From: Fibrobacter sp.
GTDB lineage: Bacteria > Fibrobacterota > Fibrobacteria > Fibrobacterales > Fibrobacteraceae
Assembly (NCBI GenBank): GCA_017412605.1
Contig: JAFPWY010000015.1
Span: forward strand, 1-64,000
Direction of reading: 5' to 3'
DNA length: 64,000 bases
Within the stretch, counting starts at the first letter, position 1; the number at the start of each line of letters is the position of its first letter. The position numbers and the translations under genes were made by a program. Below, piece after piece: positions 15,992-38,746 of this stretch. The notes beneath the pieces were generated by a model. The model made no database searches. It had not been told where the DNA came from and saw only the letters and a list, made by a program, of their open reading frames with translations.

Positions 15992-16708
15992 CTACATAAA
16001 CGCTAATCCAAAATTCGTACGTCGTTCCAAAGAATTGCGACCTACCTGGATTTCTTTCCACGATTCCTTGTGATTATCCGTCAGCGACAATTCAGGTTTC
16101 GGTTTGTATGCGAAGTCGGACTTTGAAATAAAATTGATGAATCCGGGAATGTTTTCCCTGTAATGCAGGGCGAAATTTACGGCATCAATCTCTTTGTCCT
16201 TGTCGTTGGAATTTTGCTTGTTGTAAAGCACGTGATCCAAGTTGCACGACATGTAGTAGGCGTTATAGGGGACTTTCCAGATTGTCGGTGTGCTCGCCAA
16301 ACGCAAAAGGTTTTTCGCCTTTCTTGAATTGCGCTCGATGATATTTTCCCGAACAGGGCATAGGATTTTGTCCAGGGTGTAGAAGGGTGCATCCACATTG
16401 CCCTGCACTACATAGCTTTCCGCGACAAAAGCGCCATCGGTATCTACGATGTGGATGATGCGTTCGAAATGCTCCGGTTTTAAGCGGTAGGAATCGGCCC
16501 ACCTCTTGACGACCTCGGCAATCTTCTTCGTGATATCTGCTGTGCCGACTTTTTGGTGCGTGTCCTTGTCGAACTCCGTCGTGATATCGCAATGCATCAC
16601 GTGGGTATAGACGGTATCCTTGTCGAAATGGCGGGAAAGGAGCACGCCGAGGGCGGTTTCGTCGGAGGGACCTTCAACAATGACGAATATGACTTTTTTA
16701 CGAGGCAT
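15992..16708 (-). CDS. TOPRIM-domain protein paired with AAA ATPase
   Basis: Start ATG 16708 lies 5 bases after GGAGG. The 238-residue protein opens with KKVIFVIVEGPSDETALGVL, giving the TOPRIM Glu12, and continues to IIHIVDTDGAF with the D-x-D pair Asp89/Asp91. These are the metal-binding residues of TOPRIM nucleases such as those of OLD/GajA-like, PARIS AriB and RloB-related proteins. It overlaps the ATPase gene by 11 bases. In such pairs the ATPase commonly senses and the TOPRIM protein acts as nuclease effector; that role here is inference. Confidence 0.7.
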   Translation of the reverse strand: MPRKKVIFVIVEGPSDETALGVLLSRHFDKDTVYTHVMHCDITTEFDKDTHQKVGTADITKKIAEVVKRWADSYRLKPEHFERIIHIVDTDGAFVAESYVVQGNVDAPFYTLDKILCPVRENIIERNSRKAKNLLRLASTPTIWKVPYNAYYMSCNLDHVLYNKQNSNDKDKEIDAVNFALHYRENIPGFINFISKSDFAYKPKPELSLTDNHKESWKEIQVGRNSLERRTNFGLAFM

Positions 16709-18071
16709 TGGAACCTCCGGCAAGTTTGAAAGCCAGGGCGATTTCGGAATTGTTGGTCGATTCGTAAACGGGTTCGCTCTGTTCGCCCAGGATAATGTCG
16801 CGGTAATAGAAGTCGCGCAGGTTGTTGGTCGTCTTCACGCCGCTGAAGCGGATGTACCTGTTCATCGGGTTTGTGGTAGTGAACACGATGAAGTTCTTGT
16901 CCAGCGTTTCGAGGGGCCGCAGGTTGTGCGACGTGAACAGCAGCTGCCCCTTGCCCTTCTCGGAAATGACGCGGAGAATTTCGCCCAGCAGGTATTCGAA
17001 GATGCCGGAATCGAGCTCGTCTATGGCGACCGTGATGGAACGGTTGTTATAGACATCGATAAGCAGGGAGAGTATGGATATGATTTTCTTGATGCCGTCG
17101 GATTCCATCACGAGCGGGAATTCATGGCCTTCCTTGCAAGATGTCATCTGCACGATATAGCCCAGCGTACCATCGGGCATAAGTTCCTTGCCGAGAATCT
17201 TCAGGCCGACCTTGAGATTGGGAATAATCTGCGGCAGAACGATGTTTATGCTGTTGATTGTTTTTTTCAGAATCTCCAAAACAATCGAAGAAACAGGTGT
17301 TGATCTTCTTAATGCGAGCAACAGGCTTAGGGACGTATGGTTTTCGCCGTGGTCCAGAGAGATATGGAGCGGCATGTCGTTTAAGTTGATGCGCCCCGTA
17401 GAAGCCGTCCTGATTACAAAAAGTTCACGTGCGCCATACCACGCCAATCGTGCCAAAATAGAATTAGTTTCTCCAGGTATAATGGCATCGTTCATTTCCT
17501 TCGAGAATATAAAGGAGGCGGTATTTGCTTCGGCCATTTTTTTTGCGACGAGCAGGGCGGTCTTTTTGTTTTTGTCTTTGCCCATGAGCGCGTCGTATTT
17601 CGCTTTGGGGACAAAAGGGGCTTCGCTGTCGGTGTCTATGTAATCGACAAACTTGGTCGCAGAATCCTTATTTTTGCTCGAATAAGAAATCTTCTCGTTG
17701 CAAATGACTAATCTGGTGAGGTGTTCGCTTTCGGCTTTCTTTAGTGTGAAGCTATAGACTACTTTGTAGCTGGTTCCGCTATCGTTATCTTCGATGGCGA
17801 ACTCGAATTCAAGACGGGCAGACTCGCTATCGACATTGATGCAAGATATGAAATAGTTGGCGACGTCTTGGGGCATGGGGTATCCCATAAGGCAATGCCT
17901 CAGCAAGACCAGGGCTTCGATAATCGCTGTTTTACCGGAACCGTTTTGCCCGTAAATACCGGCAATACAGGCCTCGTTTTCGTCCTTGCGAACCAGAGAA
18001 ATTTCGCCTTTTTTGACGTTTTTGAAGTTTTCAAGGAGGATTCTCTTCAATATGACCGTTGAGTTCTTCAT
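16698..18071 (-). CDS. AAA15/RloA-like ATPase, first gene of the operon
   Basis: 457 residues. P-loop GQNGSGKT at residues 41-48 follows LENFKNVKKGEISL, the usual SMC/RecF-like opening. The second half holds the ABC-type core with TVAIDELDSGIFEYLLGEIL (Walker B/D-loop region) and QLLFTSHNLRPL (switch His). The end (RFSGVKTTNNLRDFYYRDII) resembles RloA/AbiL-type ATPases of abortive-infection systems. It is followed by TOPRIM, ExoX_C-like and helical genes with overlaps or gaps of a few bases. Confidence 0.8.
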   Translation of the reverse strand: MKNSTVILKRILLENFKNVKKGEISLVRKDENEACIAGIYGQNGSGKTAIIEALVLLRHCLMGYPMPQDVANYFISCINVDSESARLEFEFAIEDNDSGTSYKVVYSFTLKKAESEHLTRLVICNEKISYSSKNKDSATKFVDYIDTDSEAPFVPKAKYDALMGKDKNKKTALLVAKKMAEANTASFIFSKEMNDAIIPGETNSILARLAWYGARELFVIRTASTGRINLNDMPLHISLDHGENHTSLSLLLALRRSTPVSSIVLEILKKTINSINIVLPQIIPNLKVGLKILGKELMPDGTLGYIVQMTSCKEGHEFPLVMESDGIKKIISILSLLIDVYNNRSITVAIDELDSGIFEYLLGEILRVISEKGKGQLLFTSHNLRPLETLDKNFIVFTTTNPMNRYIRFSGVKTTNNLRDFYYRDIILGEQSEPVYESTNNSEIALAFKLAGGSNAS

Positions 18072-18538
18072 ACCCCTAAAATAGCTTAATCAGCCGAAAA
18101 AGTCAACGCCAAACGCAAAAACGATATAAAAAATATCGAAAATGGCTTTGATTAGTTGAAAAATAGGTGTGGTGAAGCCGGGACATAGTCCATATAATAC
18201 CTCTTTTTTTTGATGCTGGGGGTGGGGAAGGGCTTCCCCTCGCGAGAAGTCCGTGGAAGGAGATTTTCGTCCTTCTCGGACAGTTGGGGTAAAAAAAATG
18301 AAGGCTCTGGAGCAATCAGGTGCTTATTTTAAAGGGTAAAGTAAAAATGTGCCAGTGCCATTTGTTCTAATTTTGTGAATTTGTGTTATATCTGCAACAA
18401 AGTATTTGGAAAATGATTGCGTTTCTTGTGATGTAGCATATTTATAATAAATTTTTCGGATAAGTTACTTTTGCAAATGAATGAATGAGTATACATTTAG
18501 AGCGTTATAAATTGACTAGATAATTAGAGGTTATGATA
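18072..18538. other. Intergenic region between divergent defence operons with hairpins
   Basis: 467 bases with no credible ORF. From left: a palindrome CGATAT-AAAAA-ATATCG (18122-18138), 51 bases before the ATPase start; a G-rich hairpin GGGGAA/TTCCCC (18224-18239); and a longer hairpin with arms GTCCG..GAAGGA and TCCTTC.CGGAC (18249-18281). The last 200 bases are AT-rich and should contain the promoter of the reverse transcriptase operon. The hairpin block could be part of an RNA or a degraded element. Confidence 0.5.
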
Positions 18539-20149
18539 ATGGATTTTGCTAAAATAGCTATAGATAATATATCAAAGTGGGGTGATACGGATATTTTCCC
18601 TTTTTCTGTGGAAAATGCTCTTTTTTATGACAAACCTGATTTGGTTAGAAATCTCATTATAGATATGGAACGGAATTTTGATGCTTGGATGGCTGATTAT
18701 CCGGTTAAATGCGTAAAAACGTGTGTTCCTGTGGGGTATACTGGTTATCGTTGGGCCTCTTCCATTGATCCGTTATGGAATTGTTTTTTATTGTATCAAA
18801 CGCTTAAGATATCAGAGAAGTTGGAAAAAAATCGTATTCCGATTAGTAAACAAAGTGTTTTCTCGTATCGATTAAAAATAGATGAAGAATCTGGTAAAAT
18901 TTTTGATCCCGATCAGAATTGGAGAGCATTTTGCACAAAAGCTGTTGAATATGCTGAATCAGGAAAATATCGATTTGTTGTGCGTTTTGATATATCAGAT
19001 TTTTATAATCGTATCTATCATCATCGTCTTGAAAATAATTTGATTAGATGTAAGGCTGATGGCAATGTAATACATCGAATAATGAAGATTTTGCAAGCGT
19101 TATCAGATGATGCCTCTTATGGACTTCCTGTAGGTGGAAATGCTTCAAGAATTTTGGCAGAAACACTTTTAACATCCTTTGATCAGATGTTAGCAATAAA
19201 AAGAATTGTTTTTTGTCGTTATGTAGATGATTATATATTATTTGCGGATTCACGAGAAGATGCGTTTAAAAAACTAAACTATTGTGCAAAGTATCTTTTG
19301 CAGAATCAGGGATTAGGACTTCAGAAAAGTAAAACACAAGTGATGACTATTTCTGAATTTATATCGCAAACAAAAAATGTTCTTGAATCAATGGAAGAAG
19401 AAAGTGATGAAATCTCCAAAAAACGTGCTGAGTTTTTAAGACTTCATATACATTATGATCCGTATTCTGCTACAGCAGAAGAAGATTACGAAAAATTAAA
19501 AGAGAATATAAAGAGTTTTGATGTTCTATCTATATTAAAAAATGAAGTGCGGAAAAGTAGGATTCACCACGCTTTGGGAAAACAAATCCTAAATGCAGTA
19601 TCCTTTTTAGATGGAAGGAAGCTAGATCTCGCATTTAGCGTGATTGGTGCGAATATTGAAAATTTGTATGCAATTTTTCCCTCTGTTATGCAGATTGTTC
19701 GTAAAAAAATACAGGAAGTTTCACCAGATATACAAAAAGAATTTATTTCGACTTTGTTTGATTTAGTTGAAAAAGATTCTTATATTCTTCAGACGGAAAA
19801 TAACGCTTCTTACGCAGTCCGCGTGTTTGCTAAGTATAATGATGAAGTGAGTTATCAGGCTATTGATAAATTATATTCTAGAGAAGCGTCGTCTTTAGTC
19901 AGGTCTAATTGTCTATATGCAATGGCTAATTTAGGTAATGGTCCGTGGTTGTCAGATAAAAGACCTGATTTTCCATCATTTTCTACTTGGGAACGAAGAG
20001 CTTTTATTGCTTCATCCTTCTTTTTAAATGATGAAGGAAAACATTGGCAAATACATGCAAAGAAACAATTCTCTAAATTTGAAACCATTGTTATGGATTG
20101 GGTTGGTGAAAAAATTAGAGAAAATAAGGATTGGAAATTTCCAATATGA
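18539..20149 (+). CDS. UG/Abi-type reverse transcriptase (defence-associated RT candidate)
   Basis: ATG 18539 has AGAGG 8 bases upstream (the ATG at 18533 is too close). In the 536-residue protein, the N-terminal DTDIFPFSVEN and GYRWASSIDP are typical of the unknown-group/Abi RT class. RT motifs follow: RFDISDFYNRIYHHRLE with catalytic Asp151, GLPVGGNASRILAE, RYVDDYILFAD with the YVDD box at 228-231, and LGLQKSKTQ. The C-terminal half (about 300-536) is alpha-helical with HEAT-like character, the known layout of Abi/UG RTs such as AbiK. No maturase, integrase or retron msr-msd gene was recognised. Its stop codon overlaps the start of a nuclease gene (ATGA). Confidence 0.85.
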   Translation: MDFAKIAIDNISKWGDTDIFPFSVENALFYDKPDLVRNLIIDMERNFDAWMADYPVKCVKTCVPVGYTGYRWASSIDPLWNCFLLYQTLKISEKLEKNRIPISKQSVFSYRLKIDEESGKIFDPDQNWRAFCTKAVEYAESGKYRFVVRFDISDFYNRIYHHRLENNLIRCKADGNVIHRIMKILQALSDDASYGLPVGGNASRILAETLLTSFDQMLAIKRIVFCRYVDDYILFADSREDAFKKLNYCAKYLLQNQGLGLQKSKTQVMTISEFISQTKNVLESMEEESDEISKKRAEFLRLHIHYDPYSATAEEDYEKLKENIKSFDVLSILKNEVRKSRIHHALGKQILNAVSFLDGRKLDLAFSVIGANIENLYAIFPSVMQIVRKKIQEVSPDIQKEFISTLFDLVEKDSYILQTENNASYAVRVFAKYNDEVSYQAIDKLYSREASSLVRSNCLYAMANLGNGPWLSDKRPDFPSFSTWERRAFIASSFFLNDEGKHWQIHAKKQFSKFETIVMDWVGEKIRENKDWKFPI

Positions 20150-20835
20150 TTTCTGAAACAACATTTGCAAGAGGTTATTCATCCTTTTGGATGGAATGTT
20201 TTCCGTGGCTAAATTCGTATTCTCAAACTGTGAATGAATATCAGTTAAATAGGTTTTCTGCGCCCTTTTCTAAATTTGATAAAGCAGAGCATCGCTCTAT
20301 TAATAATACGATTGCTTTTTTTCATTTTCGAAATTTGGTGTCAAACTTGAATTTTTCTCTAGAAAAATCAAGGGATGAAGCGCTCCAGTACATGATGCGT
20401 TTCCCAAGAAATAATGTGTTAACATATGAGTTTAATTTAAATGATAAATATGTTATTGAAACGTTGTTGAAAAATTTGCAGAAAATTCCTAAAACAAACC
20501 TTGTTTTGGATCCATTCTTTTCTGGTTGTGGAATAATTGATAATTGTAGAGGAGATATTCTTCAAGGAAATAAGCTCATAGAAGTTAAGGGTGGAAATAG
20601 GTATATTCAGCCTGCAGATATCAAACAACTAATTGTTTATTTGGCTCTTGATTGGATTTCTTCAAATAAGCACAATATTTATCAAGTAGAAATTTACAAT
20701 CCTCGTGTTGGTTTTTCATGGACAACGGATACGGATGATTTGTTTCGTTCTGTAACGAATTTCACAAAGGAAGAAGCTCTTGAACAGCTGACTAAGTATT
20801 TGGTTATGCAATCTGAAGAAATGGTAATAGAATAA
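20146..20835 (+). CDS. PD-(D/E)xK nuclease-like protein coupled to the RT
   Basis: Start ATG 20146 overlaps the RT stop (ATGA), so translation is coupled. The 229-residue product contains GDILQGNKLIEVKGGNR: Asp137, then Glu146-Val-Lys148, followed by PADIKQLIVYLAL with a conserved-type Gln. This is the core of PD-(D/E)xK nucleases (D, ExK, Q). The N-terminal 130 residues are helical and unassigned. The tight coupling suggests the nuclease acts in the same system as the reverse transcriptase, possibly as effector. Confidence 0.7.
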   Translation: MISETTFARGYSSFWMECFPWLNSYSQTVNEYQLNRFSAPFSKFDKAEHRSINNTIAFFHFRNLVSNLNFSLEKSRDEALQYMMRFPRNNVLTYEFNLNDKYVIETLLKNLQKIPKTNLVLDPFFSGCGIIDNCRGDILQGNKLIEVKGGNRYIQPADIKQLIVYLALDWISSNKHNIYQVEIYNPRVGFSWTTDTDDLFRSVTNFTKEEALEQLTKYLVMQSEEMVIE

Positions 20836-21293: not shown

Positions 21294-21511
21294 TTCATTC
21301 TTTTGCGCAAGTAAGTAAAGATTCTGAAAATGTAACGATTTATATTAATTTGATGTGCAGGTAAATGACGAAGGGGCTTTGTATTGTAAAAATCTTCGGC
21401 AAGATTAGATGAATTGTTCGGCAGAAAACTTTTCTCGCGAGTTTTCAGTGCATGCTGTTGCAAATGAAATCTGACTAGGACTGCGCGCACCACATTTTTT
21501 ACTTTCCATAA

Positions 21512-21530
21512 CCGCCCTTATGAGAAGATA
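21512..21530 (+). repeat. Inverted repeat IR-L of hsdS inversion cassette
   Basis: CCGCCCTTATGAGAAGATA, 19 bp, perfectly repeated in inverse orientation at 22596-22614. It encodes RPYEKI at the start of each half-hsdS cassette. Confidence 0.9.
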
Positions 21531-22079
21531 ACTGTTGAAGATGCGCCTTTTGATATTCCTAGTTCATGGAAATGGGTAAAATTGGGCGATGTATGCACTT
21601 TTTTAAATGGTTTTGCGTTCGATAGTAAAGATTTTCAAAAAGAAGGAATTCCTATTATTAGAATTTCTAATATCGGAAAAGAATCTATTGATTTATCTAA
21701 TTGCGTGTATTCAAAAGATATACTGAGCTCAAATTTCGAGGTCATTGATGGTGATTTGCTTATAGCGATGTCCGGAGCTACAACCGGGAAAATGGGTATT
21801 TACACAAATTGCGACAAGGCTTATCTGAATCAACGAGTTGGAAACGTTAAAATCAAGAATGAAGAAGTGCTTATACGTGGCTATAGGAACATATTCCTTT
21901 TTTCACAAAGCGATCGCATTCTTGCTGATGCATATGGAGGAGCCCAACCTAATATTAGTAGTAAGGCTATATGTGAAATCCCTATGCCTCTTCCACCTTT
22001 AGCAGAGCAGAAACGAATCGTAGACAAGGTCGAAGAGCTTTTCAAATCGCTAGATGAGATTTTGCTCCATCTGATCTAA
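21512..22079 (+). pseudogene. hsdS: Silent hsdS half-cassette A (one target recognition domain)
   Basis: The frame is open from the inverted repeat (HNRPYEKITVEDAPFDIPSS, then WKWVKLGDVCTF) to the stop at 22079 and encodes one DNA target-recognition domain plus the C-terminal helix PLPPLAEQKRIVDKVEELF. It lacks a start codon with ribosome site and the first half of HsdS, so it is a storage copy. It matches the arrangement of the second half of the complete hsdS at 23504-25018. Its end overlaps the end of cassette B, which lies in the opposite orientation. Confidence 0.8.
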
Positions 22080-22614
22080 TGTGGAATACAATTCTTCAAT
22101 CTTTGAAACAATACGAGATTGCTCATTTAAGGGCGGGATTGGTAATTCATATTTTTTTACTTCATATGGTTTTGCCCTAGTTAAAGAGCCGCCAACACCT
22201 GATGTGTTTGAAAGCATTTTATTCAAAAAATAATTAGATTGAAGTACATAAACTAGATATTGCGGATTCAATCTAGAATTTCTAATAATAACCCATTCCG
22301 AAGATGCAATCATCCGGTGTTCCGTAAATTGAGGAACGCGCCATACTCTGTTTAAGTGTGGATTTATTTTGCTAATTAAAACATCGTCTTTTTTTACTAA
22401 AACTTTTGTAGATCCTATTTCTGATCCAGTTACAATTTCCGGATGCCTTACTTCAAAACACGGGACGCTATATAATTCATATACGCGATTCTTATTTTCT
22501 TTTAACATCGGATTTTCAGTATATGACTGAAAATCATTAATATCGTCCATTCTTACCCAACGCCAACTTTCTGGTATTTCAAAGGGAATGTTCTCTATCT
22601 TCTCATAAGGGCGG
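22050..22614 (-). pseudogene. hsdS: Silent hsdS half-cassette B
   Basis: On the minus strand from the inverted repeat at 22614: RPYEKIENIPFEIPESWRWV then RMDDINDFQSY and a different target-recognition domain, ending with PIPPLNEQSRIVSKIEELY. No start or first half is present. It is convergent with cassette A, overlapping by 30 bases in the shared C-terminal helix region. Confidence 0.8.
22596..22614 (-). repeat. Inverted repeat IR-R of hsdS inversion cassette
   Basis: Reverse complement of 21512-21530, identical over 19 bp. A related site with a few differences lies in the active hsdS at about 24077-24097 (minus strand CCGCCCCTACAAGAAGA), encoding RPYKK. Confidence 0.9.
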
Positions 22615-22680
22615 CAGTGTAAACTTGCAAAATGATTCTTTGTTATAAATCGATATCATCATTTAAACAAAGGAATCAAC

Positions 22681-23502
22681 ATGCCAAAACAAAAACGAGA
22701 ACAAACGCCTTTTGAACGGTATCTGCGAAAGCAGAATCTTTCTGAAAATACGCTAACATCCTATTTATGGACTGTCAAATACTATTCCGAGCATTACGAG
22801 GATTTTTCAAAGGAAAATCTTTTGGCGTATAAGGAATATCTTATTGAATTCTTTAAGCCCAAGACGGTTAATCTTCGCTTGCAGGGATTGAACAAGTATT
22901 TGATTTTTATCAAGAAAGGAAAATTGCAACTGAAATTCGTCAAGGAACAGCAGAAAAATTTCTTGGAGAACGTCATCAGCAATGCGGATTATCAGTTTTT
23001 TAAATCAATGCTTAAGGCTGATTGTAATTTGGAGTGGTATTTTGTGGTGTGGTTCCTGGCGGCAACGGGAGCGCGTGTCAGCGAACTGACGCAAATCAAG
23101 GTGGAACATGTGAAAATCGGCTGGTTTGATCTGTATTCCAAAGGCGGTAAACTTCGGCGACTGTATATTCCTAAAATTCTCCGCAAAGAAGCGCTTGAAT
23201 GGTTGTCTAGTATTAATCGACATTCAGGATTTATCTTCTTGAATCGTTTTGGCAAGCGGATTACTACAAGGGGGATTGCTTCGCAATTAAAGACTTACGC
23301 CATCAAATATGGAATTAGCACCAAGGTCGTGTATCCACATTCTTTCCGACACCGTTACGCAAAGAATTTTCTAGAGAAATTCAATGACATCTCGCTACTT
23401 GCCGATTTGATGGGTCACGAAAGCATTGAAACGACTAGAATCTACCTTCGCAGAACCGCGAGCGAACAACAGGAAATTGTCGATACAGTCGTAACTTGGT
23501 AA
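22681..23502 (+). CDS. Tyrosine recombinase, probable hsdS invertase
   Basis: 273 residues. The N-terminal SAM-like domain (FERYLRKQNLSENTLTSYLW) is followed by the catalytic domain with ATGARVSELTQIK (first Arg), PHSFRHRYAKNF (H-x-x-R), LMGHESIETTRIYLR (GH and the nucleophilic Tyr). Lying between silent hsdS cassettes and the complete hsdS, and ending 1 base from it, it fits the tyrosine recombinases that invert hsdS segments in phase-variable type I systems. Its own promoter should lie in the 66 bases between IR-R and the ATG. Confidence 0.85.
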   Translation: MPKQKREQTPFERYLRKQNLSENTLTSYLWTVKYYSEHYEDFSKENLLAYKEYLIEFFKPKTVNLRLQGLNKYLIFIKKGKLQLKFVKEQQKNFLENVISNADYQFFKSMLKADCNLEWYFVVWFLAATGARVSELTQIKVEHVKIGWFDLYSKGGKLRRLYIPKILRKEALEWLSSINRHSGFIFLNRFGKRITTRGIASQLKTYAIKYGISTKVVYPHSFRHRYAKNFLEKFNDISLLADLMGHESIETTRIYLRRTASEQQEIVDTVVTW

Positions 23503-23503
23503 T

Positions 23504-29266
<5,763 letters not shown>

Positions 29267-29523: not shown

Positions 29524-30789
29524 ATGCAATTAGGTTGGATTGATTTTTCAAAAGAAGATAAGGACAAGGCGTTAAAAGTAATGTGGCTCTTAAAAGAATC
29601 AGACGTTCTTGATGAACTTGGTTTTGGCGTGCTTAGAAATGCTTTTGCGAATGATTTTTTCCCTGGAATATCAACGCTTCATACACGTCCTAAATACTTA
29701 TATCTCGTTTACTATATGCTTCTTGATTTTCAAAAAAAGTGCAGAGATCAGAACGGTTCTAAAATTCCATTTGATGTAAATCCTTCTGTGTTTAAAGAAA
29801 AAATGAGAAAGTTGATTGACTCAGAAGAACATAGTGTGAAAAATTGTTTAATAAAAAACAAATGCGAAGAGGGTGTTTTTGGAAGTTCTAAAAAACAAGA
29901 AAGCTATTGGGTAGATAGAACCCCTTTAGTTGTGTATTGGACTGGTCTTAGAACATACGGTTTTTTGAAAAAAAAGGAAAATCTAGTTTCCTATAATGAT
30001 GTTCTTGTATTTTTTTATGAAATAGCGAAGGATAAAGATGCTAAGAAAAACACATGGAAAAAACTAAGAACAGATGATGAAGATGAACATAATCTTGGAA
30101 AATCATTTTCTAGTCCGTTGAATGAATTTAAATATGATTCAAATTGGAAAAAAAATGCCGTTATTGATTTGTCGAATGAAGAAGCCAAGGATTTGAAAAA
30201 TAGAATCATTAATGGTGAGTTCTCAAAGAATTCTCTATTCGCCTTGCTTTTAAAAATGAATGATTTGTCAGATGTTTTTTATAAAATGGATTTTGCAACC
30301 TTTGTAAATGTGTATAAGAATCAATTTCCCGACGAAGTCAAAGAAAAGCTAGTGCTAGCGACACAATTGAATGACTTTTATAATATGGTAATGGTTCGCT
30401 ATTCCTTTCTTCTTGATAAGGAACGTTTTAAAGACAATTGGGAAAAAATGGCGAAGGACGCCCTAAAGATTTGCAGACAATTCAATCCTCAAAAAATTTA
30501 TTCAGTAATGAATATACATAGAGATCCCTTGGAAATTTTTTTGAATAATTTGAAAAAGGCGATTCCAGTAGCCATAGAATCTGGAGATTATCGTGAAGTG
30601 GATCGCTTAATAAAAGAGCGAGAACTGAAAAAGAAGAAAGAAAAAAATGCAAAAATTGGTCACCCAGATAGAATTTCAAGCCAGGATTTAAAAAAATATG
30701 AAAATATGACTAATTTAAGATTTAACTTCCGATTTGATAGAGCAAAACAATATATTGAAGATATTAAAAAGGGGCTGAATAATGCTTGA
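29524..30789 (+). CDS. DUF6361-like protein, first gene of a four-gene defence-like operon
   Basis: 421 residues. The opening LGWIDFSKEDKDKALKVMWL then VLDELGFGVLRNAFANDFFP and TRPKYLYLVYYML matches the DUF6361 pattern known to me. The C-terminal part is helical and very basic (RELKKKKEKNAKIG). No catalytic motif is visible. It overlaps the PLD gene by 8 bases. DUF6361 proteins are often found beside PLD-family nucleases and helicases; molecular role unknown. Confidence 0.7.
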   Translation: MQLGWIDFSKEDKDKALKVMWLLKESDVLDELGFGVLRNAFANDFFPGISTLHTRPKYLYLVYYMLLDFQKKCRDQNGSKIPFDVNPSVFKEKMRKLIDSEEHSVKNCLIKNKCEEGVFGSSKKQESYWVDRTPLVVYWTGLRTYGFLKKKENLVSYNDVLVFFYEIAKDKDAKKNTWKKLRTDDEDEHNLGKSFSSPLNEFKYDSNWKKNAVIDLSNEEAKDLKNRIINGEFSKNSLFALLLKMNDLSDVFYKMDFATFVNVYKNQFPDEVKEKLVLATQLNDFYNMVMVRYSFLLDKERFKDNWEKMAKDALKICRQFNPQKIYSVMNIHRDPLEIFLNNLKKAIPVAIESGDYREVDRLIKERELKKKKEKNAKIGHPDRISSQDLKKYENMTNLRFNFRFDRAKQYIEDIKKGLNNA

Positions 30790-32710
30790 TCCCCAAAACA
30801 GAAAAGAGCATATTGTTTATAGTGATTCTTTGATTCCACCCAAAGATTTCCCTATTTTAGAAAGGGCTATAGCGACATCCTATTCATTGGATGCCTCCGC
30901 TTTAATTTCATGTATGGTTCCGTTGGCTTTTTCAGATGATGTGAATAGTAAATTATTTGAAAATAAGGTTTGCCTTCTTTCTGCAATGCGCCAACTTTCG
31001 GAAAAACTTATAGTTTTTTGTGACCCTGGGCAAATAAAGGTACTGAAAAAAACGAACCAGGAATTTGCTTTGATGTTGGAGCAGATTATTGTTCCTGTTT
31101 ATAGGGAAAAGGTCAATAAGGTATATCCTGCATTTCACCCTAAAATGTGGCTATTGCAATTTGCTGATGAAAAGAGGAAGAAACATAATTACAGATTAGT
31201 TGTTCTTAGTCGAAATATTTCGTATGATAACACTTTTGATGTTGCGCTTGTTTTGGATAGTTGTGGCCCAAAAGAAAAAAATAGTTCTTTAAATAAGACA
31301 AAGTCGTTGCTGGAATATCTGCAATATTTGATATCTATAGAAAACTTAAATAAAAAACAAACTGAAATGCTTAACTCCTTATTGGAAGATATGAAAAAGG
31401 AAGGAGTATGCTTTGATTTAAGTGATTCAATATTTAATAATGCTGAATTTGATTTTTATCCTTTATATGGGAAAGATCAGGAAAAAAAGAATAGATTTGA
31501 AGAAGTAGTTTTGCCGCAAAGTGGCGATTATGATAAAATTTTTGTAATGTCTCCCTTTCTTTCGTGGGATATCCTATGGAAATTAAAGAAAGCGTTGAAT
31601 AATGATGAACAGGAAAATATCAAGATTGTCACAAGGCAAGAATCATTAAATTCTGTTTTTGAATCTCAAAAAAAATGGAAAAAAGAAGAATTCCTTTCAA
31701 ATTTTGAATTCTATAAATTGAACCCGGATATCAATTTTGTAAATGATGAAGAAAGCGAAACAAATGAGGTTGAAATAGAGGAAGACGGAGCGGATAAGGC
31801 TGAAACAGAGCGAAATAGATATGATATTCATGCGAAAATATTCGTGACAGAAAAAAAGATTGGAAAGGGTTCGGAAAAGGAGTTGTTTATCGGTTCTGCC
31901 AATGCAACAAATTCTGCTTTTTTTAGAAATAGTGAGCTTTTAGTAAGGCTGAAATCGACATCAAAAGAATTAAATGTAGATCAACTTATTGAATCGTTAA
32001 ATTCTTCAAATAATGATATGTTTATTCGGATTGATGATGTCGAGAAAACGGATCTGGAAGAAATCATAAATAAACGGGTTGAAGACTTGATGAGGTCTTT
32101 AGTCCATGTTAAGGCAAAAGCAATTGTTGAAAAAGAACAGGATAAATATCGTGTTAGCATAAAAATTGTGGATTTACCAGATTTTAATGGAATAAAAGTT
32201 ACTATTGGAACAATAATAGGGTTGCATGTAAAAGATCTTGTTAGTTCGGTTGTTTTTGATGATTTGGAAGTAGAAGAATTGTCGATGTTTTATGTTGTTT
32301 CTGCAACAGAATGCATAGAAGGTAAAGATGTAAAAGTAGAACGCCTTATAAAGATTCCTACGGAGGGGCTTCCGGAGCAAGAGCGGCGCGATGCTTTACG
32401 AAAGAAAGTCATTACTGATAATGACTCTTTTGCAGAATTCTTTTCATTAATGTTGGCTTCCAATTCTGTAGTAGCTCAATTGGAAAGACGAAAAGATAAA
32501 CATGATTCTGCTAAGTGGAATATTACTTCGGGAAGCAAGGGACTTTACGAATCTCTCTTGGAAGCGAGTGCTTCAAATCCACAGGCAATTATTAATCTTG
32601 GTCAAGACGTCGCTGAAATAGATGATGAAAAAATTGTTCCCACGACATTAAAAAAATTGTTCGGTCTTTTTGAAACTGTGGCAAAAAAAGAGGTGGAACA
32701 TGACGTCTAG
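30782..32710 (+). CDS. Phospholipase D-family (HxK) nuclease-like protein
   Basis: 642 residues. Two HxK-type sites suggest the two halves of a PLD fold: FHPKMWLLQF near residue 119, and DIHAKIFV near 350 followed by LFIGSANATNSAFFRNSELL, the H-K-N/E pattern of phospholipase D-like nucleases. The C-terminal 250 residues have no recognised domain. Overlaps of 8 bases upstream and 11 bases downstream place it firmly in one operon with the DUF6361-like and helicase genes. DISARM and several restriction-type systems also use PLD proteins. Confidence 0.8.
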   Translation: MLDPQNRKEHIVYSDSLIPPKDFPILERAIATSYSLDASALISCMVPLAFSDDVNSKLFENKVCLLSAMRQLSEKLIVFCDPGQIKVLKKTNQEFALMLEQIIVPVYREKVNKVYPAFHPKMWLLQFADEKRKKHNYRLVVLSRNISYDNTFDVALVLDSCGPKEKNSSLNKTKSLLEYLQYLISIENLNKKQTEMLNSLLEDMKKEGVCFDLSDSIFNNAEFDFYPLYGKDQEKKNRFEEVVLPQSGDYDKIFVMSPFLSWDILWKLKKALNNDEQENIKIVTRQESLNSVFESQKKWKKEEFLSNFEFYKLNPDINFVNDEESETNEVEIEEDGADKAETERNRYDIHAKIFVTEKKIGKGSEKELFIGSANATNSAFFRNSELLVRLKSTSKELNVDQLIESLNSSNNDMFIRIDDVEKTDLEEIINKRVEDLMRSLVHVKAKAIVEKEQDKYRVSIKIVDLPDFNGIKVTIGTIIGLHVKDLVSSVVFDDLEVEELSMFYVVSATECIEGKDVKVERLIKIPTEGLPEQERRDALRKKVITDNDSFAEFFSLMLASNSVVAQLERRKDKHDSAKWNITSGSKGLYESLLEASASNPQAIINLGQDVAEIDDEKIVPTTLKKLFGLFETVAKKEVEHDV

Positions 32711-35700
32711 AGATTCAAAAGAAAAAGTGATTGAAAAGCAGTTGAAAAACATTAATGATGCGTTATTTGGAATAGATTGCCAAAAGGGTTCCTTGAAGGA
32801 CTTTCAAAGGGAAACCGTAAATCGTGTAGATTTTCTTTTTTCAAATGAACAAAATAGAGTTCTTGTTGCTGATGAAGTCGGATTAGGCAAGACAATGGTG
32901 GCAAGAGGCGTTATTGCAAAACTTGCTCAGAAACAAATAAAAAAACAGTCTTTTAAGGTTGTTTATATTTGTTCTAATCAATCTATTGCAAAGCAAAATA
33001 TTCGAACTATCGACATTTTAAATTCAGATCCATATATTGGAGATGCGCGACTTTCTATGCAACATTTGAATATCATGCGCATGGAATGTCAAGATGATTT
33101 AGAGAAAAAATTTATTCAACTTATACCTTTAACGCCTGGGACTTCTTTTGATGTTGATGGCGGTGGAGATGTGAGAGAAAGGGCTCTTATTTACGTATTA
33201 CTTGGTAGATGCAAAGGGATATACCGAAAGGATAAAAAGAATCTACTGGGTAAATTGCTGTCATTGACTTGCGGACATAAATCTTGGAAGGAAAGCGTTG
33301 AAAAAAAACGAAGCGAACTTAATATGGTTATCAGAATGTGTAAAAAAAAGCAGTCTGATGGCTCTTGTGATTATAAATTAAATTATCCCAAGAATATTCT
33401 TTTGTCTCTTAGCAAAGAGACTATGCCTGATGGGCGAAAAATATTTGATTCAATTGATAGTTGCCGAAAGAAAATAAAGAAGAACAAGTGTGGTTGGACG
33501 CCTGATTGTGGCAAGTGTCAAAAAAAAGGAAAAGGTTGTGAACGAAGAGAAATAGTATCTGTGCTGCGAAAATTTTTTGCAAGGGTTGGTGCAGAAATGC
33601 TCAATCCAGATTTAGTGATTATGGATGAGTTCCAAAGATTTAGTAAACTGATTCAAATAGATAATCAAAGTGATGAGGCTGTTCTTGCAAGAGAATTTAT
33701 TCGTGAGAACGACGCTTCTGGAAGTACAAAGACGCAGGTTCTTCTGCTCTCTGCCACTCCATATAAATTGTTCTCAACAATAGAAGAATTGTATGAATCT
33801 AAGGATGATGATTCTTGTAAAGAATTTCTTGCTGTTGTAAATTTTTTGTTTGAAAAGAAAAATTTGCCTTTTGACAAACAATGGGAAGTCTATTCTAAAA
33901 GATTGAAGGCCTTTTCTGATAAAAACAAAGCTCAGAAAAAGATTACAGATTTGGATATAAAAGAACTGCTTGAGGGGGCAAGAAATTTAGAAAACGTACT
34001 ATATGGAGGAATATGCCGAACGGAACGCATTTCCGTAATGGATGACAATGAATTCTATAAAGTGAAAGGTGTTGAAGATAATCAACATTTAGATGTTTCT
34101 CGCGAGGATATAGAATCGTATGTTCAGGCGCATAATTTAATTAGTGAATGCGGTATACCTAGAAATATTCCTCCTGATTATATAAAAAGTTGTCCTTATA
34201 TAATGTCTTTTATGGAAAATTATGTTTTGAAAAAAAACATTGTAAAGGCGTTTTCAGAAAAAATGGTTAGCGATATTCAAGTTGCAAACAAACCTCTTTT
34301 ATGGTTAGAAAGGCCTCAGATACAGAAATATGGTGAACTTCCTGAATCGAATGCAAGATTAAAAAGATTAAAAAAAATTGTATTTGAAAACAATTCGGAG
34401 AAATTGTTGTGGTGTCCGCCCACAAAACCTTATTACTCATTAGAAGGGGCGTATCTTGATTCAGATGGTTTCTCAAAAACCTTGGTTTTTTCTGCGTGGG
34501 AAATGGTTCCTAGAATGCTAAGCTGCTTAGTATCTTATGAAGAGGAGCGCAGAATACGATTGAATAAAAAGCAAAAAGGAAGCTATTTTAAGAGGAAGCG
34601 TTCTAGTCAATTGAAATTAGACATGAGGAATAGATATGGGAAAAAACTGTTTTCAGAACTGTACCCGTCAGAATTTTTGGCAAATTTATATAACCCAATA
34701 TTGTATTTAAACAATGGGATTTGTTCAAAATCTTTAATAAAAGATTCTCTTCGCGAAAAAATCAACAAAAAATTAAATTCATTAAAACATAGGGTGAATT
34801 CAGAATGGCCTGAAGATACAGATTGGTATATCGCGGCCTTAATCTTTTTAGATAATCGTAAATATGTTCAAGACTGGCTGGATCGTTTGATGTCAGATAA
34901 AAGTGTAGAGAAAGAAGAGATGTCTAACGATCTATATGAGGAGGATATTTATCAAGAAATTGATGAAGAATTGTTTAATGATACGGAAAATGATGATGCT
35001 GAAGAAAATGATATTGATGATGACGATGATGAAGACGAAGAAGATGATGAAAATGAGGAAAAATCGGCAGAAAAAGAAACAAATGTTCTTTTTTCACGTT
35101 GTTTGAAATACGTTGAAAATATTTTGGAAAAAAAGAAATTTGGTCAAATGCCGAAAGATTTGGAAGATTTCCTTGTTGATGTTACGATGGGGTCTTTCGC
35201 TACATGTTTTTATCGATCATTTAAGACAGGTGAAGCATGCATTGATGTAACAAAAGTAAACGCAACAAGATTCGGCCGTACTTTTATAAAGAATTTTAAT
35301 ATTCCTGAAACAATGGAAGTTCTGGATAGTATAAATCGTGATAATGATACTACGGGTATAGAAAAAAAATATATTGAATATGTTTACGATTATTGTATCG
35401 AAGGATGTTTTCAGGGGATGCTGGACGAATATGTTCACCTGCTTATGAAAAATGACGTTGAGTTGTGTCAGGAAGATATTATAGAGAATATGGAGTTGCT
35501 AAAAAATCCGCCTTATTCGATTGATACTTTTAGAGCCTTTGAAAAGACGGTGAAGCATAGAAAACTAAAAAAAGGTGATAGAATTAATATGTATCCTCAT
35601 TTTGCGGTATGCTTTACCGAATCGTCCGAAAAGAAAGAAGGAAATCGTAAGGACAAGATTCGCAATGCCTTTAATTCTCCGTTGAGACCTTTTGTGTTGG

Positions 35701-36215
35701 CTTCAACATCAATTGGCCAAGAGGGATTGGATTTTCACAATTATTGCCGGAAAATTATGCATTGGAACTTGCCTTCTAATCCAGTTGATTTGGAACAAAG
35801 AGAAGGGCGAATAAATCGATATAAGTGTCTTTCTATTCGTCAAAATGTTGCAAAATTACATGGAGATATTCAATTGGATGACACAAAGGATATGTGGTCT
35901 CAATTGTTTGACGAGGCACTTGCAAGAGAAAAAGGCCCCTGTGATCCAGAATTGATTCCCTATTGGGTATTTGGAAAAAATCAGCAGGTCAAAATTGAGA
36001 GACATGTTCCTGTTTATCCTATGAGCCGTGATTCTATGCGTTATGAGCGCTTGATAAAGATTCTATCTCTTTATCGATTGACATTAGGTCAGCCAAATCC
36101 CGAAGAACTCCTTGAGTACATGTATAAAAACTGTAGCGAAGAAGATATAAAGAAGTTGACTAAAGGGCATATTGATTTGTGTCCTTGGAATAAAAGAGAT
36201 TTGACAGAGAATTAA
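32700..36215 (+). CDS. Large SNF2/DEAD-type helicase with acidic insert
   Basis: Start ATG 32700 follows GAGGTGG; about 1171 residues. Walker A VADEVGLGKTMVARG (about 57-70), Walker B VIMDEFQRF (near 305), LLLSATPYKLFS, and C-terminal lobe TSIGQEGLDFHNYC with EQREGRINRY (motif VI, near 1030). Two inserts are unusual: a Cys cluster (CGWTPDCGKCQKKGKGC, near 265-285) that could hold zinc, and an acidic run of Asp/Glu (about 760-790). It overlaps the PLD gene by 11 bases. The helicase probably supplies ATP-driven DNA translocation for the system. Confidence 0.85.
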   Translation: MTSRDSKEKVIEKQLKNINDALFGIDCQKGSLKDFQRETVNRVDFLFSNEQNRVLVADEVGLGKTMVARGVIAKLAQKQIKKQSFKVVYICSNQSIAKQNIRTIDILNSDPYIGDARLSMQHLNIMRMECQDDLEKKFIQLIPLTPGTSFDVDGGGDVRERALIYVLLGRCKGIYRKDKKNLLGKLLSLTCGHKSWKESVEKKRSELNMVIRMCKKKQSDGSCDYKLNYPKNILLSLSKETMPDGRKIFDSIDSCRKKIKKNKCGWTPDCGKCQKKGKGCERREIVSVLRKFFARVGAEMLNPDLVIMDEFQRFSKLIQIDNQSDEAVLAREFIRENDASGSTKTQVLLLSATPYKLFSTIEELYESKDDDSCKEFLAVVNFLFEKKNLPFDKQWEVYSKRLKAFSDKNKAQKKITDLDIKELLEGARNLENVLYGGICRTERISVMDDNEFYKVKGVEDNQHLDVSREDIESYVQAHNLISECGIPRNIPPDYIKSCPYIMSFMENYVLKKNIVKAFSEKMVSDIQVANKPLLWLERPQIQKYGELPESNARLKRLKKIVFENNSEKLLWCPPTKPYYSLEGAYLDSDGFSKTLVFSAWEMVPRMLSCLVSYEEERRIRLNKKQKGSYFKRKRSSQLKLDMRNRYGKKLFSELYPSEFLANLYNPILYLNNGICSKSLIKDSLREKINKKLNSLKHRVNSEWPEDTDWYIAALIFLDNRKYVQDWLDRLMSDKSVEKEEMSNDLYEEDIYQEIDEELFNDTENDDAEENDIDDDDDEDEEDDENEEKSAEKETNVLFSRCLKYVENILEKKKFGQMPKDLEDFLVDVTMGSFATCFYRSFKTGEACIDVTKVNATRFGRTFIKNFNIPETMEVLDSINRDNDTTGIEKKYIEYVYDYCIEGCFQGMLDEYVHLLMKNDVELCQEDIIENMELLKNPPYSIDTFRAFEKTVKHRKLKKGDRINMYPHFAVCFTESSEKKEGNRKDKIRNAFNSPLRPFVLASTSIGQEGLDFHNYCRKIMHWNLPSNPVDLEQREGRINRYKCLSIRQNVAKLHGDIQLDDTKDMWSQLFDEALAREKGPCDPELIPYWVFGKNQQVKIERHVPVYPMSRDSMRYERLIKILSLYRLTLGQPNPEELLEYMYKNCSEEDIKKLTKGHIDLCPWNKRDLTEN

Positions 36216-36231
36216 AAAAGAGGATGTGATT

Positions 36232-37209
36232 ATGCCCAATTACTTCGGATACCGAATCGATACATCTAACAGAGAATTCTTTCAAAAAGAATTGCAGAAA
36301 CATAAACGACTTCGCCAAGGGTGGGGGTATGACCCTGGGCAAGATTTAAGAAATATGACTGTAAATGAAGGTGCATCTCGTAATAGGAGCATGTTTAAGG
36401 TTAAACAGGGAGATATTCTTCTTGTTCCTGGTCTTTGTTCTCCAGATACAGTTGCGATTGTTCGTGCAACGCAAGATTTTGCGACCGGTTATCGGTTTGA
36501 AATTGATCCAACCTTAAAGGACTTTGGTCATATATTCCCTGCAGAATATGTTACAGAGTTCCGCCGTCATAATTCTCTTGTTGGCAAGCTTAAGGCTTCG
36601 CTTCGCACACCCATGCGGTTTTGGAGTCTTAATGATTTTGCAGAGACCATAGAAAAATTAATTGCGGCACCAAGGGAATCGTTGCTGGAAGTTAAAGATT
36701 ATGTTGATAGATATGAGGAAATAGAAGAATCTGTTTTTGATTTATTTGCCAATGAAATAAAATCTAAACTTTATGAAAAAATGTATTCCCAATTTTCAGA
36801 ATCTGAATGGGAATTTGCTTTAGTTCATGGTTTGCGAAAATTGTATCCCCATTATAAGGTTGAGCGAGTGGGTGGCAAGATAGAGAAGGATCATGGCGCG
36901 GATATCGTTATTAAAATTCCATCGCCGCTCACTTACGATGAATCCTATTATATCATTGCAATTCAGGTTAAAGATTATACTAAAGTCGTTGGTTATGGGC
37001 CAATTGATCAAGTGTCAAAAGCAGATTCCTATGATGAGTGGGAAAATGAACAAAATAAGCTACTTGAGAAATGGGTTATTCTGACTGGTTGCGAAAAACA
37101 ATTGAATCTTGAGTTTGAACAATATGCGGCAAGTAAAAATGTGAAAGTCATTTGGGGCAATGATTTGAAAGAATTATTATATAATATTGCAATGAAAGCA
37201 AATGGATAA
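36232..37209 (+). CDS. Mrr-like PD-(D/E)xK restriction endonuclease
   Basis: 325 residues from ATG 36232 (AGAGG in front). The C-terminal third carries the Mrr-type nuclease core: DHGADIVIKI (Asp near 224) and IIAIQVKDYTKVVGYGPIDQ (Q-V-K near 245, then Gln). The N-terminal 200 residues may recognise DNA or partner proteins. It begins 16 bases after the helicase gene, completing a four-gene operon. Confidence 0.75.
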   Translation: MPNYFGYRIDTSNREFFQKELQKHKRLRQGWGYDPGQDLRNMTVNEGASRNRSMFKVKQGDILLVPGLCSPDTVAIVRATQDFATGYRFEIDPTLKDFGHIFPAEYVTEFRRHNSLVGKLKASLRTPMRFWSLNDFAETIEKLIAAPRESLLEVKDYVDRYEEIEESVFDLFANEIKSKLYEKMYSQFSESEWEFALVHGLRKLYPHYKVERVGGKIEKDHGADIVIKIPSPLTYDESYYIIAIQVKDYTKVVGYGPIDQVSKADSYDEWENEQNKLLEKWVILTGCEKQLNLEFEQYAASKNVKVIWGNDLKELLYNIAMKANG

Positions 37210-37270: not shown

Positions 37271-37897
37271 ATGTTCTCCTTCATCAAAAAATTCTTTGAA
37301 CGCCGCAAGGCCCTTGCCGTTGAACGCGACAGCTTATGCAACGAGTTGCTACGACGGGTTTCTTGGGCGTTGTCGGACTATATTGATGCAAGCAAAACGA
37401 AGGAATCAATTCAAAAGTGGCTTGAGGATAATAGTAAGTTACTTGTTGAGCTGAGTGATATTCGAGGATTTAAAAAGTCGCCTTATTATGGGCTGCTTTT
37501 ACAGCAAAGAAAAAAATTTGATGAATTCTATACGCGGGTTCCTAGCAGGATTAATTATTTTGTCGCTGCAGAACAGAAGAAGCGTGCAGATGCCGAGTAT
37601 GTCTCAAAGAAAGTGAATCAATGGGCTTCGGAACAAAAGTCACAAAAGATTAAAGCATCGAAATCGAAGGAATTAGGTCGGAAAATAGCGAAGTTGACCG
37701 TGAACGCGGATGATTCAATCCCTGCAAATGACAAGTGCTCTTGTTGCGGCAAAGATGGCAAGAAGAAGATGATGTATTCAACGGAGGGTGAGGCGCTTAT
37801 TGTTGCGGAGCACCGCTCTAAAGAAATCGGGGTTCCGCTACACGTTTATCCATGTCCCAATGGCTGTGGTTTCCACCTCACGAGTAATCAGGAATAA
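37271..37897 (+). CDS. Hypothetical protein with C-terminal zinc-binding cysteines
   Basis: 208 residues. The first 150 are helical; the end holds KCSCCGKDGKKKMMYSTEG and VYPCPNGCGFHLTS, a probable four-Cys zinc ribbon. No Shine-Dalgarno is obvious. Not assigned to a family. Confidence 0.6.
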   Translation: MFSFIKKFFERRKALAVERDSLCNELLRRVSWALSDYIDASKTKESIQKWLEDNSKLLVELSDIRGFKKSPYYGLLLQQRKKFDEFYTRVPSRINYFVAAEQKKRADAEYVSKKVNQWASEQKSQKIKASKSKELGRKIAKLTVNADDSIPANDKCSCCGKDGKKKMMYSTEGEALIVAEHRSKEIGVPLHVYPCPNGCGFHLTSNQE

Positions 37898-37945: not shown

Positions 37946-38746
37946 ATGGGCATTATTATAATCTTGGCATTTTTGATTATCGCGTTATTTGCGCTGATTT
38001 CGATTATGTCGCAAAAGAGCGTGGGATCTCCGGCCTATGTTCCTCCGAAACTGGAAGGGAATCGCCCATTTGCCGAACAGAATAAGATTAAGGAAAATCA
38101 GAAATATTACGAGTCGTTAGTCCTGCAGAGCCCTTATAATGTGAACGATTGGCTGAATATTCACCCTGGAGACGAGAACCTTGGCCCGTACGGAGAATTT
38201 CTGACTATAAAGCAGATTGTGAGGGCGTGCGGGGAAACTCAATCTTTTTACAAAATTTTGAATAACATATACCTTCATAGTTCTGATGTAACAACCGAGG
38301 TTGATATCGTCTTGATCCATGAGACTGGGGTCTATGTTTTTGAAAGCAAGAATTATGCGGGCTTTATTTTTGGATCTGCAGAGCAGAAGGAATGGACTCA
38401 GTCACTTAATCCACGCGAGAAGCATCGTTTCTACAATCCTCTTTGGCAGAATCGCGGCCATATAGCGGCGCTTAAGCGTGTCCTTGGCCAGAACCTGCAA
38501 TATTATTCCTTCATTGTCTTTAGCGAACGCTGCCAACTCAAAAAAGTGCCGCCAGATAACGCATCTACATTTATCTTGCGGCGGCATAATTTAAGGGACT
38601 CTCTTGTGAAAAAACTATGCACAACGTCAACGGCTCTTTCGATTGACCAAATAGAACAATTGTACCAAAAGCTTGTCCCTTTTTCAAATGTGTCCGAGGC
38701 AGAAAAAGAATCGCATATTCAGCGTGTTAACGGGAAGAAGAATTAA
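37946..38746 (+). CDS. Membrane-anchored NERD-domain protein
   Basis: 266 residues. An N-terminal transmembrane helix (MGIIIILAFLIIALFALISI) precedes a NERD domain: EVDIVLIHETGVYVFESKNY with the D..ExK nuclease-type core, then GSAEQKEWTQ. NERD domains are related to PD-(D/E)xK nucleases and often stand near defence and DNA-processing genes. Biological role here is not known. Confidence 0.75.
   Translation: MGIIIILAFLIIALFALISIMSQKSVGSPAYVPPKLEGNRPFAEQNKIKENQKYYESLVLQSPYNVNDWLNIHPGDENLGPYGEFLTIKQIVRACGETQSFYKILNNIYLHSSDVTTEVDIVLIHETGVYVFESKNYAGFIFGSAEQKEWTQSLNPREKHRFYNPLWQNRGHIAALKRVLGQNLQYYSFIVFSERCQLKKVPPDNASTFILRRHNLRDSLVKKLCTTSTALSIDQIEQLYQKLVPFSNVSEAEKESHIQRVNGKKN

What the first reader, a model, noticed from the sequence alone, without database searches (positions are those of the whole stretch)
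29524..37209. Four-gene DUF6361-PLD-helicase-Mrr operon
Four plus-strand genes with overlaps of 8 and 11 bases and a 16-base gap encode a DUF6361-like protein, a PLD-fold protein with two HxK sites, a 1171-residue helicase and a Mrr-like nuclease. Two nuclease types plus a translocase in one operon next to a type I system strongly suggest anti-phage or anti-plasmid function. The helicase has a Cys-cluster and an acidic insert. It resembles DISARM only in having a helicase and a PLD; there is no methylase or DrmB-like gene.
Basis: partly seen in the sequence, partly recalled or inferred. Interest (0 to 1): 0.8.

Follow-up and report, generated by a model that had tools for sequence, protein, structure and literature searches.

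The report
Azaca defence system beside a nuclease
Three of the four genes are a textbook copy of a known bacterial anti-virus system called Azaca, and the fourth is a separate DNA-cutting gene that happens to sit behind it, so the find is ordinary.

Summary
The interpretation 'unnamed four-gene DUF6361-PLD-helicase-Mrr operon' does not hold. Genes 1-3 match PADLOC ZacA, ZacB and ZacC over nearly their full length (E 4e-64, 3e-110, 3e-278). These are the genes of the published anti-phage system Azaca. The A-B-C order was found in 80 of 88 loci (window included), spread across bacteria and archaea; the other 8 are cut off at a contig edge. The fourth gene is not part of the unit. Among those 88 loci a gene-4 relative occurs only in this window. 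Its nearest relatives (81-86% identity, three genomes of the same genus) stand alone in genomes without a ZacC of family strength. The two other genomes of the genus with a full Azaca lack it. Its predicted structure is a YTH/EVE-like modified-base reader fused to a PD-(D/E)xK nuclease, which suggests a self-contained type IV-like restriction enzyme. Minor novelties are a Cys4 motif in ZacC shared only with two Treponema ZacCs, and a longer acidic insert. Likely mechanism (inferred): ZacC translocates on DNA, ZacB cuts it, and ZacA is an all-helical partner of unknown fold.

The parts
29524..30789 (+). ZacA of Azaca (DUF6361), 421 aa
   Evidence: PADLOC ZacA 4.2e-64, residues 2-419 on profile 4-395/396; Pfam DUF6361 6e-13; all-helical model, mean pLDDT 88.8
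30782..32710 (+). ZacB of Azaca, double-HKD PLD-fold protein, 642 aa
   Evidence: PADLOC ZacB 3e-110, residues 1-637 on profile 1-584/586; PLDc_2; both HxK halves conserved in 74-75 of 75 aligned sequences
32700..36215 (+). ZacC of Azaca, SF2-type helicase, 1171 aa, with a Cys4 motif (residues 264-280) and an acidic stretch (around residue 773)
   Evidence: PADLOC ZacC 3.1e-278, residues 31-1164 on profile 12-1018/1019; GxGKT, DEFQ, SAT and QREGR motifs conserved in 77 of 77
36232..37209 (+). Stand-alone YTH/EVE-like plus PD-(D/E)xK (Mrr-like) nuclease, 325 aa; not part of Azaca
   Evidence: Absent from the other 87 Azaca loci; homologues of 81-86% identity stand alone in G060, G073 and G090; fold matches to YTH domains and to MspJI-type nucleases

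Best explanation
Genes 1-3 are a complete, apparently intact Azaca (ZacABC) anti-phage system carried in a defence island. Most likely ZacC is an ATP-driven SF2 translocase that loads on or scans invading DNA, ZacB is the nuclease that cuts it through a two-HKD PLD active site, and ZacA is an all-helical adaptor or recognition subunit. The ABC unit and the conserved motifs are shown here. The anti-phage role comes from the literature on the family. The division of labour is inferred and has not been shown for Azaca in any paper I could read. Gene 4 is an independent passenger: a YTH/EVE-like domain that probably reads a modified base, fused to a PD-(D/E)xK nuclease, acting as a type IV-like restriction enzyme (inferred from fold and motifs).
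For: Near-full-length PADLOC matches to ZacA, ZacB and ZacC. ZacC is listed as the Azaca helicase in PMC12278908; a PLD-like domain is listed for Azaca, citing Millman et al. 2022, in PMC10952713. A-B-C occur in the same order and on the same strand in 80 of 88 loci, and the 8 exceptions are truncated at contig edges. The nearest relative of all three proteins is the same Treponema locus L056 (47, 45 and 55% identity), and identities of A and B to the window track those of C across 67 loci (Spearman 0.83 and 0.80), so the three travel as a unit. Catalytic motifs of ZacB and ZacC are intact. Gene 4 is found alone in G060, G073, G090 and G138, on four IMG/VR records next to an integrase-like gene, and on a Nitrosococcus plasmid. 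No recurrent gene follows ZacC: 26 of 75 loci have a plus-strand ORF within 100 nt, and the proteins look unrelated by their starts. Gene-4 fold: residues 1-150 match YTH domains (Z 8-9) and residues 172-325 match 1y88, MspJI and AspBHI (Z 9-10), with E218, D224, Q245xK247 and W31/W131 invariant.
Against: The 16-base gap suggests genes 3 and 4 may be co-transcribed here, so some functional coupling cannot be excluded. No activity was tested. The ZacA model has no informative fold match. The gene-4 model has a modest pTM (0.56), so its domain arrangement is uncertain.
Confidence: 0.93

Rival explanations
1. A four-component variant of Azaca in which the YTH/EVE-PD-(D/E)xK nuclease is a local accessory effector or sensor that works with ZacABC.
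For: 16-base gap, same strand; no terminator-like site was found between the genes.
Against: No other Azaca locus of 87 carries a gene-4 relative; close gene-4 homologues occur without a full ZacC in the genome; its fold looks self-sufficient.
Confidence: 0.05
2. A new, unnamed four-gene defence system, as first proposed.
For: DUF6361 itself has no function name in Pfam, and NCBIfam has no full-length model for these proteins.
Against: PADLOC names genes 1-3 as ZacA, ZacB and ZacC at near-full length, and the fourth gene is not conserved with them.
Confidence: 0.01
3. A degenerate DISARM or PLD-helicase system.
For: ZacB has a weak DrmC match (5e-4) and ZacC matches DrmD over about 60 residues (7e-14).
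Against: ZacA-C matches are vastly stronger; no DrmB and no methylase among the four genes, and only a short local DrmA match.
Confidence: 0.01

Closest known systems
Azaca (ZacA, ZacB, ZacC)
   Same: All three proteins at near-full length, same order and strand, overlapping or nearly touching genes, same catalytic motifs.
   Different: This ZacC carries a Cys4 motif (C-x5-C-x2-C-x6-C), shared only with two Treponema ZacCs, and a longer acidic stretch; a fourth unrelated gene follows.
MspJI/AspBHI-type modification-dependent endonucleases and Mrr (for gene 4)
   Same: A predicted modified-base reader domain joined to a PD-(D/E)xK nuclease; invariant D224 and QxK.
DISARM
   Same: An SF2 helicase and a PLD-fold protein.
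   Different: No DrmB or system-specific methylase; only weak local similarity to DrmA, DrmC and DrmD.
PLD-helicase anti-phage protein (PADLOC PLD_Helicase, NCBIfam NF042964)
   Same: PLD and helicase activities combined.
   Different: One fused polypeptide there (from the family name and length, not examined), two proteins plus ZacA here; only a local match to the helicase C-terminal part.

Membership tests
Azaca | ZacA homologue (DUF6361) at full length | tested here: met
   4.2e-64, profile 4-395 of 396
Azaca | ZacB PLD-fold protein at full length with both HKD halves | tested here: met
   3e-110, profile 1-584 of 586; H119xK121 and H350xK352 conserved
Azaca | ZacC helicase at full length with intact SF2 motifs | tested here: met
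   3.1e-278, profile 12-1018 of 1019; motifs conserved
Azaca | Contiguous A-B-C operon on one strand | tested here: met
   Overlaps of 8 and 11 bases; same arrangement in 80 of 88 loci
Azaca | Protects against phage | not testable with these tools
   Needs an infection assay; the family is listed as anti-phage in the papers
DISARM | DrmA, DrmB, DrmC plus a methylase | tested here: not met
   Only weak local DrmA, DrmC and DrmD matches; no DrmB match
Type IV-like modification-dependent restriction enzyme (gene 4) | PD-(D/E)xK nuclease core with catalytic residues | tested here: met
   Fold matches Z 9-10; D224, Q245 and K247 invariant in 10 of 10
Type IV-like modification-dependent restriction enzyme (gene 4) | Modified-base reader domain | tested here: inconclusive
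   YTH-like fold, Z 8-9, for residues 1-150; base binding not testable here
Type IV-like modification-dependent restriction enzyme (gene 4) | No cognate methylase needed; gene stands alone | tested here: met
   Stand-alone in several genomes and on four IMG/VR records

The most novel reading that the evidence does not exclude
In this lineage the YTH/EVE-PD-(D/E)xK nuclease has been recruited behind ZacC as a working accessory of Azaca, giving an Azaca variant that also senses modified phage DNA.
Probability: 0.05. Interest if true: 0.35.

Novelty: new member of a known kind. Interest (0 to 1): 0.15.

Why it matters
It adds one more intact Azaca locus, closest to Treponema Azaca loci, and shows that the conserved unit is three genes. 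The alignments of 75-77 diverse homologues give precise residues (ZacB H119/K121 and H350/K352, ZacC K64 and D309/E310) for testing the mechanism of Azaca, which a 2026 review lists among systems of unknown mechanism (PMC12926258).

Tried and rejected
Four-gene unit: rejected, because gene 4 is absent from the other 87 Azaca loci. DISARM relationship: only weak local matches. Recurrent fourth partner behind ZacC: none seen in 75 loci with downstream sequence (judged from the starts of the downstream proteins; they were not clustered or domain-scanned). ZacA function from fold: Foldseek gave no match under E 1 and the VIA re-alignment no Z over 4.3, so nothing was learned. Profile search of ZacC and ZacA against PDB sequences: no match at the limits used; ZacB gave 7clg 'putative helicase' and NucT only. 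A viral-contig scan for ZacC relatives found none, although one unverified GenBank 'Bacteriophage sp.' record carries a full ZacABC (L043). The Azaca discovery paper (Millman et al. 2022) is not in the library, so its gene-level description was not read directly; that 'Zac' means Azaca rests. My first guess that Zac meant a Zorya-associated cassette was wrong.

Full report
Observation. The four ORFs are real and at the stated places: 29524-30789, 30782-32710, 32700-36215 and 36232-37209, all plus strand, with overlaps of 8 and 11 bases and a gap of 16. The domain calls are right: DUF6361, PLD-like with two HxK sites, an SF2 helicase, and a weak Mrr_cat match just below Pfam's cut-off.

Identity of genes 1-3. 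PADLOC matches them over nearly their whole length to ZacA (4.2e-64), ZacB (3e-110) and ZacC (3.1e-278). ZacC is given as the helicase of the anti-phage system Azaca in PMC12278908, and a PLD-like domain is listed for Azaca, citing Millman et al. 2022, in PMC10952713. A 2026 review lists Azaca among systems of unknown mechanism (PMC12926258). The DISARM, Dpd and BREX helicase hits of gene 3 cover short local stretches, mostly 50-100 residues of the C-terminal motif region.

Conservation of the unit. A scan of genome contigs with a ZacC profile returned 80 loci from bacteria and archaea. With the window, two genomes of the same genus, four plasmids and one unverified phage record this makes 88 loci. 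ZacA, ZacB and ZacC profiles find A-B-C in that order on one strand in 80 of them; the 8 without ZacA all begin at a contig edge inside the operon. A few carry A, B or C in two pieces. Identities of ZacA and ZacB to the window rise and fall with those of ZacC across 67 loci (Spearman 0.83 and 0.80), and the nearest relative of all three is the same Treponema locus L056 at 47, 45 and 55%. The genus-mates G135 and G136 have a much more distant Azaca (26, 26 and about 35-40%), so this copy was probably acquired horizontally (inference).

The fourth gene. No gene-4 relative occurs in any of the other 87 loci, and no other gene recurs visibly behind ZacC. Close gene-4 homologues (81-86%) occur in G060, G073 and G090 of the same genus, none of which has a ZacC match of family strength, and there they sit among unrelated genes. 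More distant relatives lie in G138, G056 and G139, on four IMG/VR records next to an integrase-like gene, and on a Nitrosococcus plasmid as a lone 'restriction endonuclease'. The AlphaFold2 model (mean pLDDT 84.9, pTM 0.56) has an N-terminal domain resembling YTH/EVE readers (Z 8-9, residues 1-150) and a C-terminal PD-(D/E)xK fold resembling 1y88, MspJI and AspBHI (Z 9-10). E218, D224, Q245 and K247, and W31 and W131, are invariant in ten aligned sequences. This reads as a self-contained modification-dependent (type IV-like) restriction enzyme; that function is inferred.

How Azaca most likely works. Shown here: ZacC keeps its SF2 motifs (GxGKT 61-65, DEFQ 309-312, SAT 351-353, QREGR 1033-1037) in 77 of 77 aligned sequences, apart from E1035, which is nearly invariant, and ZacB keeps both HxK halves plus N145, D153 and GSxN in 74-75 of 75. 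Inferred: ZacC uses ATP to move on DNA, ZacB forms a composite HKD active site that cuts DNA, and ZacA, an all-helical protein with confident predicted structure (pLDDT 88.8) but no informative fold match, bridges or licenses the two.

Features peculiar to this copy. ZacC residues 264-280 form C-x5-C-x2-C-x6-C; the same arrangement (last spacing 5) is present only in the two closest Treponema ZacCs (L056, L057) among 77. The acidic stretch around residue 773 is part of a 98-residue segment with 40 Asp/Glu; L056 has a shorter one (73 residues, 21 Asp/Glu), and the others printed have 16-57 residues with 6-17. Both look like lineage-level elaborations.

Setting. The locus lies in a defence island: an AbiLi/OLD-like ATPase (16698-18071), a DRT8 reverse transcriptase with its PD-(D/E)xK partner (18533-20835), a type I RM system with extra hsdS fragments and a tyrosine recombinase (21582-29266), then Azaca, gene 4, a 208-aa protein and a NERD protein. 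DNA conserved widely across the genus resumes near 42.2 kb.

Verdict. This is a new member of a known system with an unrelated neighbour.

Noticed in passing
window 21503-25018: Two partial hsdS specificity genes in opposite orientation plus a tyrosine recombinase gene (22681-23502) near a full hsdS, with inverted repeats of 63 nt (83%) and 28 nt (86%) between them: looks like an invertible, phase-variable type I RM specificity locus.
   Followed up: partly
window 18533-20835: DRT8 defence reverse transcriptase (PADLOC Drt8, 4e-150) followed by its RT-associated PD-(D/E)xK protein (2e-53).
   Followed up: partly
window 16698-18071: OLD/AAA ATPase with best PADLOC match AbiLi (2e-31), oriented away from DRT8.
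   Followed up: no
window 37946-38746: Protein with a hydrophobic N-terminus and a NERD nuclease-related domain (1e-24), directly after a 208-aa unknown gene (37271-37897) whose DNA recurs at 71-81% identity in other genomes of the genus.
   Followed up: no
L112:5749-21150: A Gemmatimonadetes contig carries two Azaca loci in opposite orientation within 16 kb.
   Followed up: no
L040:1377-15001: In Haliscomenobacter pHALHY01 the Azaca operon is nested inside a type I RM operon, between hsdS and hsdR.
   Followed up: no
L043:4918-11195: An unverified 'Bacteriophage sp.' scaffold from human faeces carries a full ZacABC next to an hsdS-like fragment and an hsdR-like gene; it may be a host or mobile-element fragment rather than a phage.
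   Followed up: no
L136, L137, L138, L139: Relatives of gene 4 (44%) lie shortly after an integrase-like gene and a small protein on four IMG/VR records, a typical passenger-gene position.
   Followed up: partly
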